Of a stretch of DNA of 64,000 nucleotides, positions 53,061 through 63,799 are shown piece after piece. The stretch spans positions 62,001 to 126,000 of the forward strand of contig FAON01000010.1 of the NCBI GenBank assembly GCA_001485605.1. Reading direction: 5' to 3'. The stretch is from Candidatus Kryptobacter tengchongensis (GTDB lineage: Bacteria > Bacteroidota > Ignavibacteria > Kryptoniales > Kryptoniaceae). Within the stretch, counting starts at the first letter, position 1. Every line of letters starts with the position of its first letter. The translations under genes were made by a program, and so were the position numbers. The notes under the pieces were generated by a model. That model made no database searches and was not told where the DNA came from. It was given only the letters and a program-made list of their open reading frames with translations.

Positions 53061-54362
53061 TTATATCATTTCGCAATTTTCAACAACGCCATTTTTAAAT
53101 TTATTAACACCCCGCTTTGAAGGTAATATAACCCTGAACTCGCTTCCCTTGCCATACTCACTTGAAACATTTATTTCGCCACCGTGAAGTTCCACCAAAT
53201 ACTTTGCCAAAGCAAGCCCAAGACCCGTGCCATTCAAATGAGACTTTATCCTTGGAAATGGTTTAAAAATCTTCTGCATATCCTCACGACGAATGCCAAT
53301 ACCCTCATCCTTCACAACAAGTTCAACCAAATCATCAAAACTCTTCAAACTAATTTTAATAAACCCTCCTTCATATGAAAATTTCACAGCGTTTGAAACA
53401 AGCTGATAAACAACCTCTCTAAATTTTTTTCTATCAGCCTCAATTTCAAAATCCCTATCAATATCTAAAACTAAACTTAATTTCTTCCTTCCAATCTCAC
53501 CAGAAAAATAAGCAAGCACATCGTCAACAATTTCAGATGCTTTGAACCTCTCAAGGTTTAAACTATCCTTCCCCGTTTCAATCTCAACTATCTCTGCTAA
53601 ATACTTTAACATCATCAACATTTCATCAGCGGATCTCTTTATATTTGTGGTGAAATCTATTATATCTTTATCTGACAGATTCTTGAACTCATCCCTTAAA
53701 ATTTCTGAAAAACCAATGATTCCCGTCAAAGGCTTCTTAAGCTCATGAGCGAGAATATGCACAAATTCGTAAATTGAATTTTTAACCTTAACAGATTCAT
53801 CTTCAACGAATTTAACTTTTTCGCTCAATTTTAAGTTTTCAATGTAAAGTTTCAAAAAGGAAATCTCGCTTTCAAAATCTTCCCGCCTAAAGTTTACAAA
53901 AGGCTTATCCCCAAAAAGAGCAACATAACAAGTTGAATTATCACCCAACTCAATTGGAATTGTCATCATTAAACATTCACCTTCACTCCCGTATTTAAAA
54001 ACAAATTTGGAATTTTCACTTTCACCATTATAAATAACCGCAATCCCTTTAGCAGTGCTTTTCTCAATTATTGATTCTACCGCTGATTCAATTGAATTTA
54101 TAACTCTGTTCTTATTCTTCTCTTTTTCCTTTGAAACCAAAATTAATCCATAGATTCCCAAGGCAATTCCACCTAAAAGCAAGGATAATGAAATTAAATC
54201 TAAACTGAAGAAGATGTTTGAAATTCCAGCAAGCCATAAAGACAACACACTTGCAAGGATCCACTTCAAACCTAAAATCTTTCCATCCAAAATTTTGATA
54301 ATAAACACAAGACCGCAGACAAGAACAGCAAAAATGATATTTTGAATCACAAGTGAAATCAT
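53061..54362 (-). CDS. Membrane sensor histidine kinase
   Basis: 433 residues: three membrane helices (about 5-75), a short GAF-like soluble region (about 95-180), then HisKA with His206 (LAHELKKPLTGIIGF) and an ATPase domain with the N box (QLVSNAVKFSYEGG), G1 box (VKDEGIGI) and G2 box (GTGLGLALAKYL). It should autophosphorylate and feed a receiver. It overlaps the pseudo-receiver gene by 4 bases, so the two are co-translated. The input signal is unknown. Confidence 0.92.
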   Translation of the reverse strand: MISLVIQNIIFAVLVCGLVFIIKILDGKILGLKWILASVLSLWLAGISNIFFSLDLISLSLLLGGIALGIYGLILVSKEKEKNKNRVINSIESAVESIIEKSTAKGIAVIYNGESENSKFVFKYGSEGECLMMTIPIELGDNSTCYVALFGDKPFVNFRREDFESEISFLKLYIENLKLSEKVKFVEDESVKVKNSIYEFVHILAHELKKPLTGIIGFSEILRDEFKNLSDKDIIDFTTNIKRSADEMLMMLKYLAEIVEIETGKDSLNLERFKASEIVDDVLAYFSGEIGRKKLSLVLDIDRDFEIEADRKKFREVVYQLVSNAVKFSYEGGFIKISLKSFDDLVELVVKDEGIGIRREDMQKIFKPFPRIKSHLNGTGLGLALAKYLVELHGGEINVSSEYGKGSEFRVILPSKRGVNKFKNGVVENCEMI

Positions 54363-54751
54363 GTTTGTGCTCCTTTTGTCGTTATAATATAATTTTCACT
54401 TACAGCCATCTGAATGACTTTTTTCCATTCTTCTGGGTCAGCGAACTTACTTACAAAGTAAAATCTTGAATTTTCCCCATCTACAATTTTCAATTTACTT
54501 TCACCACATGCGACCACAATCGGTATGCCAAGCAGGACATTATCCGCAATTTTTAAAAGTCCGTTCATCTCACCCATAAACTCCGTCTCAATCACAAGCA
54601 CATCATACAGTTCAAAATGCAATATCTCAACAACTTCGGTAAACAACCCGACAACTCGCAAAACATACTCTTCAGAACCAAAAACTCTTTTCATTTTATC
54701 GCTGAAATTAGCATCGTTTGTATAAACCAAGATTTTACAAATGACCGACAT
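54359..54751 (-). CDS. Pseudo-receiver domain protein
   Basis: 130 residues with the alternating pattern of a receiver domain. The position of the phosphoacceptor, at the end of beta strand 3 (DVLVIETEF), carries Glu55 instead of Asp, and the conserved acidic pair near the N-terminus is replaced (YTNDANF). The Thr/Ser and Lys switch residues are also not clear. It may act as a permanently 'on' or binding-only receiver for the kinase that overlaps it. The receiver-fold call is by pattern, not by strong motif match. Confidence 0.6.
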   Translation of the reverse strand: MSVICKILVYTNDANFSDKMKRVFGSEEYVLRVVGLFTEVVEILHFELYDVLVIETEFMGEMNGLLKIADNVLLGIPIVVACGESKLKIVDGENSRFYFVSKFADPEEWKKVIQMAVSENYIITTKGAQT

Positions 54752-54876
54752 ATCAAAAACTTTTTAATTAAACAATCTTCACATCTAAAAATACTTCAAT
54801 TATTGTGCCAATCTTTTAAAACTTGAAATTTGATTGATTTATGGAATCTTTACTCTTCTATATGGGTAGGGTTGGT

Positions 54877-54908
54877 AAAAATTTCAAAATAAAATGGAAA
54901 TTTTGAAA
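54877..54908 (-). terminator. Probable Rho-independent terminator after the receiver-DHp gene
   Basis: On the minus strand TTTCAAAAT pairs with ATTTTGAAA (9 bp, 9-base loop) and is followed by TTTTT. It begins four bases after the stop at 54912. The stem is AT-rich, so strength is uncertain. It suggests that the 53061-54751 pair is a separate transcript. Confidence 0.55.
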
Positions 54909-54911
54909 GGG

Positions 54912-55580
54912 TTATTTATCAAGATCAAGCATTCGTTTGCCATCAACATAGGTTTTGAAGGCGGGTTTACGAAGCGAAATGAGTTTATTTACAATGTCTT
55001 TTATTCTCTCGGAAGCTTGAAAAATTCGGGTTAAATTTTCCTTAACTTTTTCAACATCATTTTCTTTCAATGAGCGATTTATAAGTTCAAGAGCAAGGTA
55101 AATTATGTTCAGCGGGTTATTTATCTCATGTCCCAAAGTTCTTGCCATTTCAAGAAGTGCGACTTCATGTTGAAGTTCTGCTATCTCAGTCTGAAGTGCC
55201 TTTATTCTAAACCCAACCCTTACTCTTGCAATAAGCTCGCCGAAATCAACAGGTTTAGTTATAAAGTCATCTGCACCCGCTTCAAGTCCAGTTATTTTGT
55301 CCTCCGTTTCAATTCTTGCTGTAAGCATTATAACATAGCAAAATTTTAACTCTTGATGTTCTTTAATTTTTTTAACAAGATCAATTCCTGACATCCCAGG
55401 CATCATCCAATCAACTATAGCGACATCTGGTTTCCATTCAACCATTTGATTAAATCCATCAACACCATCATAAGCAATTTTCACATGATAACCATTTTTT
55501 ATGATTACTCTTTTTAAAATCTCAGCATAATTTTGATCATCCTCAACGATTATTACTTTCTTTCCTATTTCCTCATCCAC
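54912..55580 (-). CDS. Response regulator with C-terminal DHp (HisKA-like) helices but no ATPase domain
   Basis: 222 residues. Residues 1-125 are a complete receiver: acidic pair in VEDDQ, phosphoacceptor Asp57 (VAIVDWMMPGMSG), Thr in MLTAR and Lys109 in ITKPVD. A short coiled coil (125-145) leads into a DHp-like hairpin with His151 in LGHEINNPLNIIYLALELI and a second helix to about 205. The chain then ends; no ATPase domain follows. It may be a phosphotransfer relay or a scaffold. It starts with GTG and overlaps the upstream regulator gene by 8 bases. Confidence 0.85.
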   Translation of the reverse strand: MDEEIGKKVIIVEDDQNYAEILKRVIIKNGYHVKIAYDGVDGFNQMVEWKPDVAIVDWMMPGMSGIDLVKKIKEHQELKFCYVIMLTARIETEDKITGLEAGADDFITKPVDFGELIARVRVGFRIKALQTEIAELQHEVALLEMARTLGHEINNPLNIIYLALELINRSLKENDVEKVKENLTRIFQASERIKDIVNKLISLRKPAFKTYVDGKRMLDLDK

Positions 55581-55971
55581 TTTTTAAATGCTCTCTGATT
55601 TTTTGAATTAAAAAATTATGGTCTGTGATTGGCTTTGAAATATAATCATCTGCCTTGCTTTCCTGAAGAAATCTTTCCGCATCCCCGCGCATTGCATGTG
55701 CTGTTGCAAGTATAATTGGAATCCTTGCTGTTTTTTCATTTTCTTTTATCATCCTTGAAAGTTTCAATCCATCAACCTGAATTCCATTCACAAATGTCCC
55801 GGAAAGTGAGACATCCATTATAATCAAATCAACCTCACCTGAGTTAAGAATTTCAGTTATCTTTCCCCCATCATCTGTCACTGTAACTTCAAATCCACCT
55901 TTTCTCTTCAAAATCACCTCAAACAACTGCGCCGTTAAAGCATCATCTTCAACAACAAGTATATGCGCCAT
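55573..55971 (-). CDS. Single-domain response regulator
   Basis: 132 residues, one receiver domain and nothing else: acidic pair in VVEDDALTA, phosphoacceptor Asp53 (DLIIMDVSLSG), Thr in LATAHAM and Lys in YISKPI. Stand-alone receivers are phosphate shuttles or act by binding partners. It lies 8 bases after the hybrid kinase and overlaps the next regulator. Confidence 0.92.
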   Translation of the reverse strand: MAHILVVEDDALTAQLFEVILKRKGGFEVTVTDDGGKITEILNSGEVDLIIMDVSLSGTFVNGIQVDGLKLSRMIKENEKTARIPIILATAHAMRGDAERFLQESKADDYISKPITDHNFLIQKIREHLKSG

Positions 55972-55979
55972 CTTTTACT

Positions 55980-58900
55980 TTAATTTATTTTGATTTGACT
56001 ATTTATTAAATCAATTAATCTATCGGGGTTTGAGCTAAGCTCGCTTTTGTCAAGAACAATTATACCCATGCTTTTTGATAGTAATTCTCTCTCTTCCTCG
56101 GTTGCTGGCTCTGGATAATTTGTTATCACAAGTATGGGAAGTTCAGGCGCAAGTTTGTTCAATCTCAACTCCCTTATAACATCATAACCATTTACCTCAG
56201 GCATCATAAGATCAAGCAAAAGTATATCATAATTTTTTGATTTAATCTTTTCAATCGCTTCTCTACCATTTTTTGCATAATCAATCTTGTATTTTTCGGG
56301 CAATATTTTCTTAAGGTAAATTTCAACGCTGACATCATCATCAGCAAGTAAGATATTAACCTCATCCTTTTCTTTCACATACTGTTTTAAAAGACTCAAA
56401 AGATAATTTGGCTCAACAGGCTTTTCAACAACACTTGGATGAAAATTAACAAATGAAAGCTTTAAAAGCTCCCTGACTTTCTGCGGATGCCCTGTCAAAA
56501 TTATAATCGGTATGTTTTTAAATTCAACTGTATCACGAACTTTTAAGAAAAGATCAAATCCATTTTTTATCTCCGCAGATGCCCTGCTTGGAATGGCATA
56601 ATCAAGTATCAAAATATCTGGCTTAAATTTCAAAATATACGCCCAACCATCTTCAGAATTACTTGCCCAGATAAACCTAAACGAATTCTTAACAAGGAAT
56701 GTCTTTAAAAAGTCAGCAAACTTTAAATCGTCATCAACAGCGAGAACCAACAAACCTGAATCCCCATAAATTTTCCCCTGCTCAATTTCAAATTCCTGAC
56801 CATATGAAACTTCAGACAACGGAATGGTAAATGTGACAGTTGTCCCTTTCCCCTCCCCTTCACTGTAAAGCTCAATGACTCCACCCATCAATTCAACTAA
56901 ACTTTTAGTAATAGCAAGCCCAAGACCTGTGCCTCCATATTTTCTCGTCGTCGTCCCATCAGCTTGAACAAACTTCTGAAAAAGCTTCGCCTGTTTTTCC
57001 TTCGCTATACCTATACCTGTATCTGAGACAGTAAATTTACAAAAACCTTTATCTTCAAAAATTTCCGCTTTTACAGTTATACCGCCTTTATGCGTGAATT
57101 TTATCGCATTCCCAATCAGATTTAACAAAATCTGTTTCAACCTGTTTCTGTCACCTTTTATGAAAACCTTTTCCTCTGGATAAATAAACTTATAATCAAG
57201 TTTCTTCTGCTCTGCCTGAACATGGGACAATGTCCAAACCTCATAAAGAAGCTCCGAAACTTCAACATTTTCAATGTTTAATTCAAGCTTTCCAGCTTCA
57301 ATCTTTGCAATATCAAGTATGTCGTTTATAATATTCAAAAGATGTTTTGCGCTCATCAAAGCGTTGTCAACAAATTTCATCATCTCCTCGTGATTTTCAT
57401 ATAATCCCTCCTTTATCAAATTCAAAAACCCAATAATTGAATTCAATGGGGTCCTTAATTCATGTGATGTATTTGCAAGGAACTCGCTTTTTAGCTTATT
57501 TAACTCTTGGAGTTGGGCATTGGCGATTTCAAGCTGTTCGGCGTATAATTTTAATTTTTCCTCCGCTTTTTTCTGCTCTGTTATATCACGATTTATCCCA
57601 ACTGTCCCGATTGGATTACCTCTTGAATCCTTCAGGATTGAAATTGAACTGCTTACATAAATTTTCTCACCCCACCTATTATAATGTATCGCTTCACCGC
57701 TCCAAAATCCCTTTTCCCGAATTATCTTTCTAACTTCTTCTCTTGACAAACTCGGAATTTCAACTGGGATGACCTCGCTTATCTCCTTACCAAGAACTTC
57801 TTCAGCTTTGTATCCATACATTTTTTCAGCTGCCTTGTTCCATGATGTTATTCTAAAATTCAAATCAGCTGCGATTATCGCATCATTCACATTCTCAAGC
57901 AAATTCGCTTGGTATCTTATCTGCTCTTCAATCTTCTTCTTCTCAGTTATATCCGATTGAATTCCAAGATAGTATGTAACACCGTGAAGCTCATCTTTAA
58001 CCGATGAAATTGAAAGAAAAGCAAAATAAAGCTCGCCGTTTTTCTTTTTGTTGATTATTTCGCCAGACCAATAACCTTTGGTTAAAATTGAATCCCACAT
58101 ATTTTTATAAAATTCTGCGTCATGAAGCCCTGATTTTAAAATTCTTGGATTTTTACCAATGGCTTCCTCTTTTGAATAGCCAGTAATTTTACAAAAGGCA
58201 TCATTTACCTCAAGTATATTCCCCTGCTCATCGGTTATGACAACTGCATCATTCAAATTGAGCAAAAGATTTGATAAAATTCGCTCTCTTTGTTCAGCTT
58301 TAATTTTATCAGTTATATCAAGTATTGTTCCGAGAATTGCAGGCTTGCCATCGTAAGTTATGAGATTGTTAAGAACTTCAACCCAAGCAATCTCACCATT
58401 TTTCTTAAACACCCTAAATGAAAAGTTCGCCACTGGAACTTCTCCCCTCAAATTTGAGGCAAACATATCAAGAACTTTTCGCCTGTCCTCTGGATGAACA
58501 AATTTAAGAATCTCTCTTGTGTTCGTTATCTCATCCCTACTGAAACCAAAAATTGAAGCAAGCTGACCACTTACAAATTTAAATCTCCCATCTTGAAAAA
58601 TATATGTTCCAGCCAGGGAACTTTCTACAAGCGTTCTATATTTCGCCTCCGATTCCCTGAGCTTTTCCTCTCCCACTTTCTGTTCGGTTATGTCCTCTAT
58701 CATACCCTCATAATAAAGAACATTCCCAACTGAATCTCTAACAGCCCTAACATGCTCCCGAACATATATCTCCTTTCCGTCAAGGCGTTTTAATCTGTTT
58801 TCAAAATTTGACACAACACTTAAAATTTCAAGAGCACGAATAAACCTTTCTCTATCCTCTGGATTAACATAAAATTCAGAAGCGTTCTTTTGTAAAATTT

Positions 58901-59633
58901 CAAATTTATCTTTCGCCCCAAACATCTTAACAAACGCAGGATTAACATCAATTATCTTCCCATCTGGAGTTGATCTGTAAACCCCAATGACCGCATTTTC
59001 AAAAAGCTGTCTATATTTTCGCTCAGCTTCAATTAGCTCATCTTCAAACCTTCTCTTTTCCGTTGTATCCACTTCAATAAATTGAATTAAATCCATCGCT
59101 TTATACCTTATCAATCGCCCACCCAATTCTGCATACCTTACACTCCCATCTTTCGTCAAAAATCCAACTTCAATAGCTTCTGCCCCTTTATCCTCAATTA
59201 TATCCTTGATATACTCACGGACAACTTCAATAAAATCCGAAACAACGAGATCAAAAATATAAAACTCTTTTATCTCATCAAGCGTATAACCGTGAAAGTT
59301 AAGCGCATAGTTGTTTGCATACTTTATTTTTCCAGTTAAATCAGTTAATATTATCCCATTGACCGAAGATTGTAAAAGACTTTTCCAAAATCTCTCGGTT
59401 TCAAAAATTCTTTGCTCAACCGAAAACCTCAAAAACGAAGATATAACCCCAATGAATATACCCACGACCGTGGGAATGACAAAATAAAAAGCATCTATCA
59501 CCGCTCCCCTATAAACCCATTCGGTAATAAACACTATAAGGTTTGAAATTAAAACAGAAATTACAACATACATTAAGATTATGACTAATTTTGAAGGTCT
59601 TGCTCTACCTTCTGTCTCAATTTTCAATTCCAT
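55980..59633 (-). CDS. Hybrid sensor histidine kinase with five PAS and two receiver domains
   Basis: 1217 residues from the ATG at 59633 (a GTG eight codons upstream, 59657, is also in frame). Two membrane helices (about 16-38 and 47-68) are followed by five PAS domains (about 82-190, 205-320, 330-445, 455-565, 575-690), HisKA with His724 (FLANTSHELRTPLNSIIGF), an ATPase domain with LIGNAIKFTHKGG, DTGIGIAKE and GGTGLGLAITKSL, and two C-terminal receivers with phosphoacceptors in ILILDYAIPS and ILLLDLMMPEVNG. The short periplasmic loop means the signal is probably sensed in the cytoplasm by the PAS domains (redox, gas or small molecule). First gene of a kinase-regulator-regulator unit. Confidence 0.93.
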   Translation of the reverse strand: MELKIETEGRARPSKLVIILMYVVISVLISNLIVFITEWVYRGAVIDAFYFVIPTVVGIFIGVISSFLRFSVEQRIFETERFWKSLLQSSVNGIILTDLTGKIKYANNYALNFHGYTLDEIKEFYIFDLVVSDFIEVVREYIKDIIEDKGAEAIEVGFLTKDGSVRYAELGGRLIRYKAMDLIQFIEVDTTEKRRFEDELIEAERKYRQLFENAVIGVYRSTPDGKIIDVNPAFVKMFGAKDKFEILQKNASEFYVNPEDRERFIRALEILSVVSNFENRLKRLDGKEIYVREHVRAVRDSVGNVLYYEGMIEDITEQKVGEEKLRESEAKYRTLVESSLAGTYIFQDGRFKFVSGQLASIFGFSRDEITNTREILKFVHPEDRRKVLDMFASNLRGEVPVANFSFRVFKKNGEIAWVEVLNNLITYDGKPAILGTILDITDKIKAEQRERILSNLLLNLNDAVVITDEQGNILEVNDAFCKITGYSKEEAIGKNPRILKSGLHDAEFYKNMWDSILTKGYWSGEIINKKKNGELYFAFLSISSVKDELHGVTYYLGIQSDITEKKKIEEQIRYQANLLENVNDAIIAADLNFRITSWNKAAEKMYGYKAEEVLGKEISEVIPVEIPSLSREEVRKIIREKGFWSGEAIHYNRWGEKIYVSSSISILKDSRGNPIGTVGINRDITEQKKAEEKLKLYAEQLEIANAQLQELNKLKSEFLANTSHELRTPLNSIIGFLNLIKEGLYENHEEMMKFVDNALMSAKHLLNIINDILDIAKIEAGKLELNIENVEVSELLYEVWTLSHVQAEQKKLDYKFIYPEEKVFIKGDRNRLKQILLNLIGNAIKFTHKGGITVKAEIFEDKGFCKFTVSDTGIGIAKEKQAKLFQKFVQADGTTTRKYGGTGLGLAITKSLVELMGGVIELYSEGEGKGTTVTFTIPLSEVSYGQEFEIEQGKIYGDSGLLVLAVDDDLKFADFLKTFLVKNSFRFIWASNSEDGWAYILKFKPDILILDYAIPSRASAEIKNGFDLFLKVRDTVEFKNIPIIILTGHPQKVRELLKLSFVNFHPSVVEKPVEPNYLLSLLKQYVKEKDEVNILLADDDVSVEIYLKKILPEKYKIDYAKNGREAIEKIKSKNYDILLLDLMMPEVNGYDVIRELRLNKLAPELPILVITNYPEPATEEERELLSKSMGIIVLDKSELSSNPDRLIDLINSQIKIN

Positions 59634-59674
59634 CAGTTTAAAATTTTTTATTTCCACTGAAAAAGGTTTGAACC

Positions 59675-59732: not shown

Positions 59733-59818
59733 AGCTAATTTTTCAAAATTTGATTTTCTTTCAATAACTTATAACACGATTAAAATTTAAACATATTCAC
59801 AAAAAATTGCAACTGATT

Positions 59819-62704: not shown

Positions 62705-63799
62705 TTAATAACATATTTTTTCAAATTTTATACTCCTTCCACAATCAATAACAAATTCAAAGTAAAGTATTGGTAATGAAATTTGCTTTTGATTATAATT
62801 TCTAAAGGCATTAAGAACGGATTGCCAGTTTCTTGGTTTATGTGGAGGTGCAACAATTATAGGTTGGATATTCCAATTGAAAGCACCATCCAGATGCCTC
62901 CCTGAACTCTGTGATGCCCAATTTACATAGTATTCTATTTGATCAACTACTTCAGGTCCTACGGGTTCATCTTTCAATTCAATTAAGCGGTACTCTTTCC
63001 TTTCGCTATTTTGACATATAGTTAGAATATCAATTTTTTGCATTCCAACACCACAGGCAATTTCGTTTCCAAACCAAATAAGATTGTTTCCAACTATAGG
63101 GTTTAAGTTTGGGTCAATTCCAATGTTTTCTGTAAAATATAGTTGAAGGTAAACCTCATATGCCTTTCTTTGTTGTTGTAGTTCGCAGATTTTAGCCAAT
63201 ACATTATAGTTAAAAGTCCTTGGACCTGGATAATTCTGCGGATTTTGAGTTGTTATTATCTTTCTATTGGTTTTATCCCAGTCAAAACCACCAGTGAATT
63301 GTGCATTTGCAATGGGTTTACCTGCATTTTTGTTTCTAATCATATCCATTAATCTTTGCGCTTCCCACGGAAGTAATGGAGTGCACCCTCTTTTACCTTT
63401 CAATTTTCTGTAAATTAAACTCCATTGAATCTCAGTCGCGTAGAGAGGAAGTTTATCTAATGCTTCCCATTCTGGCACACCATCTGAGTATACCTCGTAC
63501 GGTTCAATCAGTGTTCTGTAGATGAGTTTCTTGCCCAGGTTAGGCAAAAACCCATTTTGTCCAGGTGTATGAAATACTAAAGGGCTTTGGTCAGCAATTT
63601 TAAAAATCCCGTAAAATCCACCTTTTACTCGCGTTGTAGCCTCAATATAAAAAAGAACGAAATCCCCTGGTCTTACTCTTTTTATATCAGCTAATAAAGA
63701 AATGTTTTCATCTTTGTCTTGTGCACCAGTACCGGCAAATAAGTACTTTAAATGGCTTGGAAAAGTACCGTCATTTACTATGAAGACATGCGTTTTCAT
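62705..63799 (-). CDS. PUA/EVE-like plus NucS-like PD-(D/E)XK protein, candidate restriction endonuclease
   Basis: 364 residues, no signal peptide. Residues ~3-125 look like a PUA-superfamily (EVE/YTH-type) domain: HVFIVNDGTFP, then VRPGDFVLFYIEA and GGFYGIFKIAD, matching the PGDxVxFY and GxxxI pattern of EVE domains that read modified bases. Residues ~205-350 look like a PD-(D/E)XK nuclease of the NucS/DUF91 type: Asp257 in QKIDILTI, Glu274 and Lys276 in RLIELKDEP, and VVDQIEYYVNWA, the QxxxY helix that follows. It starts 3 bases after the stop of a probable DNA methyltransferase, so a restriction role is the best reading. A base-modification-dependent nuclease is an alternative. Both domain calls are by motif reading only. 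Confidence 0.65.
   Translation of the reverse strand: MKTHVFIVNDGTFPSHLKYLFAGTGAQDKDENISLLADIKRVRPGDFVLFYIEATTRVKGGFYGIFKIADQSPLVFHTPGQNGFLPNLGKKLIYRTLIEPYEVYSDGVPEWEALDKLPLYATEIQWSLIYRKLKGKRGCTPLLPWEAQRLMDMIRNKNAGKPIANAQFTGGFDWDKTNRKIITTQNPQNYPGPRTFNYNVLAKICELQQQRKAYEVYLQLYFTENIGIDPNLNPIVGNNLIWFGNEIACGVGMQKIDILTICQNSERKEYRLIELKDEPVGPEVVDQIEYYVNWASQSSGRHLDGAFNWNIQPIIVAPPHKPRNWQSVLNAFRNYNQKQISLPILYFEFVIDCGRSIKFEKICY

What the first reader, a model, noticed from the sequence alone, without database searches (positions are those of the whole stretch)
53061..59633. Two-component cluster with five receivers or receiver-like domains and no output domain
Five genes encode a five-PAS hybrid kinase with two receivers, a single receiver, a receiver-DHp protein, a pseudo-receiver and a second membrane kinase. 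None has a DNA-binding, cyclic-di-GMP or methyltransferase output. Either the output gene is elsewhere or the output is by protein binding, for instance on motility, secretion or the divergent GH94 gene.
Basis: partly seen in the sequence, partly recalled or inferred. Interest (0 to 1): 0.5.

Follow-up and report, generated by a model that had tools for sequence, protein, structure and literature searches.

The report
Motility-linked phosphorelay with kinase-less adaptor
Five neighbouring bacterial signalling genes carry messages by passing phosphate between proteins but lack a part that acts on DNA; their conserved core contains an unusual shortened kinase that, in related bacteria, sits among flagellar genes, so the cluster probably feeds signals to motility control through proteins encoded elsewhere.

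Summary
Pfam finds no output domain in the five genes. Four receivers keep the acidic pair, acceptor Asp, Thr and Lys; the fifth (psR) has Glu at the acceptor in 7/7 same-genus genomes. The genes look like two units: HK5-R1-RecDHp (slowly evolving, wide) and psR-K2 (fast-evolving, genus-only), the latter behind a conserved sigma-54-like site. No DNA-binding gene was lost: none lies in the cluster in any same-genus genome, nor in 13 same-order loci.

The novel part is RecDHp, a receiver joined to a DHp domain without a catalytic domain, ending in a conserved Tyr/Met hairpin (66 of 68 such proteins found). Across 46 relatives the phospho-His is kept in 45 and Asn at H+4 (phosphatase residue of HisKA proteins) in 44, but the acid at H+1 (kinase residue) in only 26. 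I read it as a REC-gated phosphotransferase/phosphatase. In relatives R1-RecDHp sits behind MotB in the flagellar operon (14/14 named loci) or behind a FliA-HDOD cassette; a paralogue lies directly upstream of an NtrC regulator in 17/17 loci. Output is most likely a receiver encoded elsewhere, with an ancestral motility link. No biochemistry was done.

The parts
55980..59633 (-). HK5: membrane hybrid kinase, 5 PAS + HisKA + HATPase + 2 receivers (GTG start possible at 59657)
   Evidence: Pfam; receiver residues; best match, among the sampled own-genome proteins, of the kinase next to RecDHp in 11/11 order-mates tested
55573..55971 (-). R1: single receiver with an insertion after the phospho-Asp strand, immediately upstream of RecDHp
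   Evidence: Pfam; orthologues at E<1e-20 in 15 of 61 genomes (7 g1, 4 f12, 4 f10), each just upstream of RecDHp by coordinates; alignment
54912..55580 (-). RecDHp: receiver + DHp, no catalytic domain, conserved C-terminal hairpin tail
   Evidence: Pfam; conservation; AlphaFold2 pLDDT 88.5
55128..55130 (-). Phospho-acceptor His151 codon of the RecDHp DHp domain (H-box GHEINNP)
   Evidence: alignment (45/46 His)
54915..54965 (-). RecDHp C-terminal tail, residues 206-222, with Tyr211 and Met217
   Evidence: predicted strands 207-211 and 215-219
54882..54908 (-). A/T-rich hairpin after RecDHp, possible weak terminator between the two units
   Evidence: MFE -4.9 kcal/mol, z -1.79, 11 of 200 shuffles as good; lies in the conserved part of the intergenic alignment. 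Not listed by the terminator scan, which asks for G-C pairs
54796..54810 (-). Sigma-54-like -24/-12 site TGGCACAATAATTGA upstream of psR
   Evidence: aligned in 7/7 same-genus genomes; only one of the 7 has the canonical TTGC at -12
54359..54751 (-). psR: pseudo-receiver, acceptor Asp replaced by Glu
53061..54362 (-). K2: histidine kinase (HisKA + HATPase_c) with a hydrophobic, probably membrane-spanning N-terminus; start overlaps the end of psR
   Evidence: membrane segment read from the sequence by eye

Best explanation
HK5, R1 and RecDHp form a phosphorelay module whose business end is RecDHp. HK5 autophosphorylates on a signal read by its membrane segment and five PAS domains and passes phosphate to its own receivers, R1 and/or the receiver of RecDHp (inferred). 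Phosphorylation of the RecDHp receiver changes the helix that runs into its DHp helices, as shown for the related full-length kinase LvrB (inferred by architecture). Having no catalytic domain, RecDHp cannot autophosphorylate by itself; its conserved His and Asn let it receive phosphate from, and pass it to or strip it from, a receiver on a protein encoded elsewhere (inferred from residues). That target most likely belongs to the motility regulon, judging from where R1-RecDHp sits in relatives. psR-K2 is a second, genus-specific unit, probably sigma-54 dependent, added as a modulator.
For: Shown: RecDHp has HisKA but no HATPase. In 46 non-redundant relatives the second Asp of the acidic pair, acceptor Asp, Thr and Lys are 46/46, phospho-His 45/46, H+4 Asn 44/46, H+1 Glu only 26/46 (12 Lys, 7 Gln, 1 Arg). 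In four HisKA kinases the acid at H+1 is needed for kinase but not phosphatase activity and Thr/Asn at H+4 for phosphatase but not kinase activity (PMC3510030, abstract and passages). RecDHp lies downstream of HK5 in 6/6 testable same-genus loci and directly downstream of an HK5-type kinase in 11/13 same-order loci, and follows R1 in 15/15 R1-bearing genomes. Named Ignavibacteria loci read FlgL-MotB-FliW-CsrA-REC/HPt-MotA-MotB-R1-RecDHp: second MotB upstream 14/14, MotA 13/14, FliW 13/14, R1 labelled 12/14. In f12 the order is NtrC-REC-x-FliA-HDOD-(GAF)-R1-RecDHp in 4 of 4 genomes, R1 of G047 seen only. Paralogue RecDHp2 lies directly upstream of an NtrC regulator in 17/17 loci L241-L257. This genome has flagellar rod genes (6 PF00460 matches). 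Structural match over nearly the whole length to LvrB, REC-DHp-CA.
Against: The genus itself keeps the module away from its own flagellar operon, and f12 keeps R1-RecDHp though no flagellar rod gene was found in its 4 genomes, so motility need not be the present output. The flagellum association is strong per genome (24/30 with RecDHp against 4/31 without) but modest per family (5/6 against 3/11) because relatives are not independent. A free HPt exists in this genome, so RecDHp is not needed to close the relay. No phosphotransfer was measured. Two relatives have Gln at H+4 and one lacks the His. The LvrB match has a high rmsd (14.8-15.1), so the domains are not superposed as one body.
Confidence: 0.5

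Rival explanations
1. Output is by binding: phosphorylated R1 acts like CheY or VemR, docking on the motor, a sigma factor or another protein; RecDHp only sets R1 phosphorylation (a phosphatase or phosphate sink).
For: R1 is a conserved, complete single receiver next to MotB in the flagellar operon of relatives. VemR, a response regulator consisting solely of a receiver, binds RpoN2 and controls flgG (PMC6637908, abstract; domain make-up from the abstract of PMC9923393 listed). The Asn needed for phosphatase is kept while the kinase acid drifts.
Against: The 13 same-order genomes keep RecDHp, 11 of them with the kinase, but have no R1 orthologue at E<1e-20 (best E 7e-18, elsewhere), so RecDHp works without R1 there. 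The genome has its own CheY beside CheA and CheB.
Confidence: 0.25
2. The hidden output is the NtrC on contig C14, the only receiver-bearing DNA-binding regulator recognised in this genome without a neighbouring kinase; HK5/RecDHp phosphorylates it, or does so through RecDHp2, and it drives sigma-54 promoters including that of psR-K2.
For: 17/17 adjacency of a REC-DHp paralogue to that NtrC; sigma-54-like sites 21 in the genome against 2 for the reversed pattern, including psR and a FlhF-like gene.
Against: RecDHp2, not RecDHp, is its conserved neighbour. 13 of the 21 sites lie inside predicted ORFs. At least 4 other receiver-bearing sigma-54 activators exist, which have kinases nearby. No specificity test was done.
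Confidence: 0.12
3. RecDHp is a decaying hybrid kinase and the cluster has no specific output of its own.
For: Loss of the catalytic domain and drift at H+1.
Against: 79-84% identity across the genus, invariant receiver residues, His and Asn kept, tail kept in 66/68 CA-less proteins, operonic context kept across families.
Confidence: 0.04
4. The cluster controls the divergent GH94 phosphorylase gene.
For: Divergent neighbour in this genome and three relatives.
Against: GH94 is absent beside HK5 in 2 of 6 testable same-genus loci, and the neighbours listed outside the genus show no counterpart; no DNA-binding protein in the cluster.
Confidence: 0.03

Closest known systems
LvrB of Leptospira (Rec-controlled histidine kinase, REC-DHp-CA; PMC13269768, passages)
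   Same: Same REC, signalling helix and DHp order; among the listed solved structures the one aligned over the whole RecDHp model (8vc9, 223-225 columns).
   Different: RecDHp stops where the CA domain would begin; it cannot autophosphorylate alone. No REC-Bergerat anti-sigma partner like LvrC was identified.
PhyT of Sphingomonas (SdrG-PhyT-PhyR relay; PMC5898713, abstract)
   Same: A His phosphotransferase that carries phosphate from a single receiver (SdrG) to an output regulator (PhyR), with binding as a second role.
   Different: PhyT is membrane-bound; RecDHp has no evident membrane segment and carries its own receiver. No EcfG/PhyR output was identified here.
ChpT / Spo0B phosphotransferases (recalled)
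   Same: DHp-like bundle used for transfer, not autokinase.
   Different: No ChpT-type C-terminal domain reaches cut-off in this genome (PF10090); RecDHp has an N-terminal receiver and no CA-like domain.
VemR single-domain regulator (PMC6637908, abstract)
   Same: Single receiver linked to flagellar gene control.
   Different: R1 is fixed to a REC-DHp partner and has a loop insertion; binding to a sigma factor untested.
Aspartate-less pseudo-receivers (PMC12632262, abstract and passages)
   Same: psR has Glu at the acceptor, the commonest replacement according to that review.
   Different: psR is a stand-alone, genus-restricted protein tied to a kinase gene.

Membership tests
HisKA histidine kinase (RecDHp) | HisKA DHp with phospho-His | tested here: met
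   Pfam 42.4 bits against cut-off 26.9; His 45/46
HisKA histidine kinase (RecDHp) | Catalytic ATP-binding (CA) domain | tested here: not met
   No HATPase_c in Pfam or with a home-made CA profile
Rec-controlled kinase of the LvrB type | REC-DHp-CA on one chain | tested here: not met
   CA missing; REC and DHp present and modelled
DHp-type phosphotransferase/phosphatase | Phospho-His and H+4 Asn/Thr kept in a protein without CA domain | tested here: met
   read with PMC3510030
DHp-type phosphotransferase/phosphatase | Measured His-Asp transfer or dephosphorylation | not testable with these tools
   needs purified proteins
ChpT-type phosphotransferase | HPTransfase C-terminal domain (PF10090) | tested here: not met
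   none over cut-off in the genome; not reported for RecDHp
Hybrid histidine kinase (HK5) | HisKA, HATPase and receiver on one chain with phospho residues | tested here: met
Pseudo-receiver / aspartate-less receiver (psR) | Phospho-Asp replaced | tested here: met
   Glu in 7/7
Pseudo-receiver / aspartate-less receiver (psR) | Receiver fold | tested here: inconclusive
   Pfam score 14.2 bits, below cut-off 30.2; single-sequence model poor, pLDDT 53
Sigma-54 promoter (upstream of psR) | TGGCAC-N5-TTGC at fitting distance | tested here: inconclusive
   -24 half kept; TTGA in the window, TTGC in 1 of 7; start site not mapped
Flagellar regulon module (R1-RecDHp) | Genes lie inside flagellar operons | tested here: inconclusive
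   Met in 14/14 named loci and 4/4 f10 genomes (two named loci are the same sequences as f10 loci), but not met in the window's own genus

The most novel reading that the evidence does not exclude
CA-less REC-DHp proteins with a conserved C-terminal Tyr/Met hairpin are a separate, phylum-spanning class of two-component adaptor: a receiver-gated His phosphotransferase/phosphatase that links one kinase to a regulator lacking its own kinase (NtrC in one paralogue, the flagellar regulon in the other), with the hairpin standing in for the missing catalytic domain.
Probability: 0.35. Interest if true: 0.62.

Novelty: new variant of a known kind. Interest (0 to 1): 0.46.

Why it matters
Many bacterial signalling genes have no visible output. 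Here comparative context gives one a testable destination and shows that a 'truncated' kinase is a conserved type of protein with its own signature. If the residue pattern means what it does in characterised HisKA proteins, the family separates transfer/phosphatase function from kinase function in nature, and it gives a lead for assigning partners to regulators without kinases in Ignavibacteria and other phyla.

Tried and rejected
GH94 as target: rejected for inconsistent neighbourhood. A lost DNA-binding gene in the cluster: none in the genus. ChpT-like transferase: PF10090 not over cut-off. RecDHp as the genome's only His-transfer protein: rejected, since CheA's P1 and a free HPt exist. psR fold: the single-sequence AlphaFold2 model was poor (pLDDT 53.1) and was not searched. 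VIA-align rows were dominated by the receiver part, so they say little about the DHp and tail; LvrB was not among its 50 listed rows. Rfam and tRNA scans of the window gave nothing. NCBIfam gave no family over its cut-off for the five proteins apart from the PAS domain model. The sigma-54 pattern is not specific: 13 of its 21 matches lie inside ORFs from my simple ORF picker. The tail expression and the CA-less class were defined with profiles built from the same family, and the expression is permissive, so counts lean towards it; only 4 CA-bearing REC-DHp proteins were available as contrast (0 of 4 with the tail). Left out of the 46-protein count: one partial copy (L090), three duplicates (L099, L108, L110), ORFs of 300 aa or more, and hits of 120 bits or less. 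Literature: five full-text searches touching REC-DHp proteins without CA or related motility relays listed no paper on this protein class by title or abstract; the library lacks most subscription papers, and a 2010 review of output domains was not held.
Full report
What is there. On the minus strand of the window lie, in transcription order, HK5 (59633/59657-55980), R1 (55971-55573), RecDHp (55580-54912), psR (54751-54359) and K2 (54362-53061). Pfam assigns five PAS domains, HisKA, HATPase_c and two receivers to HK5; one receiver to R1; a receiver plus HisKA to RecDHp; a sub-threshold receiver to psR; HisKA plus HATPase_c to K2. No output domain is present. An alignment with a CheY of the same genome shows the acidic pair, acceptor Asp, Thr and Lys in four receivers and Glu at the acceptor of psR.

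Two units. Between RecDHp and psR lie 160 bases with an A/T-rich hairpin (z -1.79, modest) and a sigma-54-like site, TGGCACAATAATTGA, about 45 bases before psR. In the alignment of seven same-genus sequences the site's 15 columns hold 10 invariant ones; only the block just after RecDHp and the end of the RecDHp gene score as high or higher. The -24 half fits the consensus (its last base is T in two of the seven), but the -12 half is TTGC in one of seven and TTGA or TTGT in the others. In the whole genome the pattern TGGCACN5TTGM occurs 21 times against 2 for the reversed pattern; 13 of the 21 lie inside predicted ORFs, and the remaining 8 include sites just before psR, a single receiver on C4 and a FlhF-like gene (the FlhF name is read from its sequence, no family call). 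psR has orthologues only in the genus (7 of 7; in the other 54 genomes one marginal hit at 5e-4), and psR and K2 diverge fast (K2 35-61% identity within the genus) while HK5, R1 and RecDHp stay near 76-86%. I therefore read psR-K2 as a young second unit.

Conservation of the cluster. HK5-R1-RecDHp is together in 6 of 6 same-genus loci that reach HK5 (one contig, G005, starts inside R1), and psR-K2 follows in 7 of 7 (in G003 the cluster is split over two contigs), with the same downstream MetH-type gene. GH94 is beside HK5 in 4 of 6 testable loci only. In 13 same-order genomes (f2) RecDHp has no R1 but directly follows a kinase in 11; that kinase's best match among the sampled own-genome proteins is HK5 in 11 of 11, at about twice the score of the next. 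R1 orthologues (E<1e-20) occur in 15 of 61 genomes and lie just upstream of RecDHp in all 15.

Flagellar context. A scan of the genome collection with a family alignment gave named loci from Ignavibacteria (Melioribacter, Stygiobacter and others); three are identical in this gene to loci of the unnamed set, which places the window's genome in the same class as Stygiobacter. In 14 named loci (L098, L100-L103, L105-L112, L115) a MotB gene is upstream of RecDHp in 14/14, next to it or separated by R1; MotA in 13/14; FliW in 13/14; R1 was labelled in 12/14. The run reads FlgL-MotB-FliW-CsrA-REC/HPt-MotA-MotB-R1-RecDHp-kinase. Not in this context were L099, L113 and L114; L104 and L116-L118 gave no small RecDHp-labelled ORF in that analysis. 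In family f12 the run is NtrC-REC-x-FliA-HDOD-(GAF protein)-R1-RecDHp, although PF00460 found no flagellar rod gene in those four genomes. The window's own genome has a flagellar operon with FliA-type sigma, HDOD, a GAF kinase, rod and hook genes, MotA, MotB and FliW, without R1-RecDHp (most gene names there rest on reading the sequences, with family for some). Over 61 genomes 24 of 30 with RecDHp and 4 of 31 without have flagellar rod genes; by family 5 of 6 against 3 of 11. That is support, not proof.

The RecDHp protein. In 46 non-redundant relatives four receiver positions are invariant; the His is kept in 45, H+4 Asn in 44 (Gln in 2), while H+1 is Glu in 26, Lys in 12, Gln in 7 and Arg in 1. 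In CrdS and three other HisKA kinases the H+1 acid is needed for kinase and not phosphatase activity, and the H+4 Asn/Thr the reverse (PMC3510030, abstract and passages). RecDHp thus has lost the constraint of a kinase and kept that of a phosphatase and, through the His, probably of a phosphotransferase. AlphaFold2 (18 sequences) gives mean pLDDT 88.5: a receiver, one helix 113-172 running into the DHp, a second DHp helix 176-204, and two strands 207-211 and 215-219 at lower confidence (about 63-71). These strands carry Tyr211 (45/46) and Met217 (44/46). Of 68 CA-less REC-DHp proteins in all loci held, 66 have a tail of this kind, including loci titled Nitrospirae, Acidobacteria, Methylomirabilota, Brocadiia and Deltaproteobacteria, against 0 of 4 with a CA domain (the profiles come from this family). 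Foldseek's match over the whole length is LvrB, REC-DHp-CA (8vc9); most rows match the receiver alone.

A paralogue as precedent. The genome holds a second REC-DHp protein (C14, L095:4338-5057) with the same tail, directly upstream of an NtrC regulator. This pair is kept in 17 of 17 loci of the genus and order (L241-L257); three further loci in the list did not show it (L258 and L259 without a RecDHp2-labelled ORF in that analysis, L260 with another neighbour), and in G002 and G019 no close RecDHp2 was found. Among 8 receiver-bearing DNA-binding regulators that I recognised by reading the proteins (5 NtrC, 3 OmpR; the 5 NtrC also) this NtrC alone has no neighbouring kinase. Receivers were listed at 33 places; 30 had loci, of which three are the window's own genes and one (L030) is a broken fragment; of the other three places one is HK5's first receiver, one is the C4 single receiver (read), and one on C3 I did not read.

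Mechanism. Shown: architecture, conservation and context. Inferred: HK5 feeds R1 and the RecDHp receiver; the receiver gates the DHp as in LvrB (PMC13269768, passages); the DHp hands phosphate to, or removes it from, a receiver on a protein encoded elsewhere, most likely of the motility regulon. PhyT (PMC5898713, abstract) is a working example of a His phosphotransferase between a single receiver and an output regulator, and VemR (PMC6637908, abstract) of a single receiver acting on flagellar genes. Against: a free HPt is present, f12 has no flagellar rod genes, and the genus keeps the module away from its flagellar operon.

Verdict. The cluster is a new variant of a known kind: a phosphorelay with a CA-less REC-DHp adaptor of a type for which I found no description in five searches of an open-licence library.

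Noticed in passing
L095:2971-6393 (own genome, contig C14): Run of KaiC-like ATPase (TIGR03878), a 124-aa possible HTH protein, a second REC-DHp protein and an NtrC regulator; the REC-DHp/NtrC pair is kept in 17 loci of the genus and order.
   Followed up: partly
L097 and L272 (own genome, contig C9): Stretches of one contig, about 8 kb apart, with a SpoIIE-type phosphatase with GAF, an HD-GAF-STAS protein, a single receiver, a free HPt and a small anti-sigma-like kinase: looks like a partner-switching sigma system with a phosphorelay input.
   Followed up: no
L030 (own genome, contig C12:177337-177639) and L210:7564-7836: A receiver fragment with three stops next to a short GAF fragment just upstream of flagellar genes: apparently a decayed GAF-receiver gene.
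   Followed up: no
L080, L081, L082, L084 (family f12): Genomes without flagellar rod genes keep a FliA/WhiG-type sigma gene with HDOD and a 430-aa protein; the one scanned gave no Pfam match, perhaps a dead kinase. What this sigma factor controls is unclear.
   Followed up: partly
L223:1094-1459 (own genome, contig C4): A second single receiver-like protein behind a sigma-54-like site at about the same distance (42 bases), upstream of a protein with repeated CxxCH motifs.
   Followed up: no
window 59784-59812: A conserved block (TTGCAATTTTTTGTGAATATGTTTAAATT on the minus strand) upstream of HK5 in 5 of 6 same-genus loci, also where GH94 is absent; possible promoter or operator.
   Followed up: no
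window 62705-63799: Protein with weak EVE-like and weak PDDEXK nuclease-like stretches (both below cut-off).
   Followed up: no
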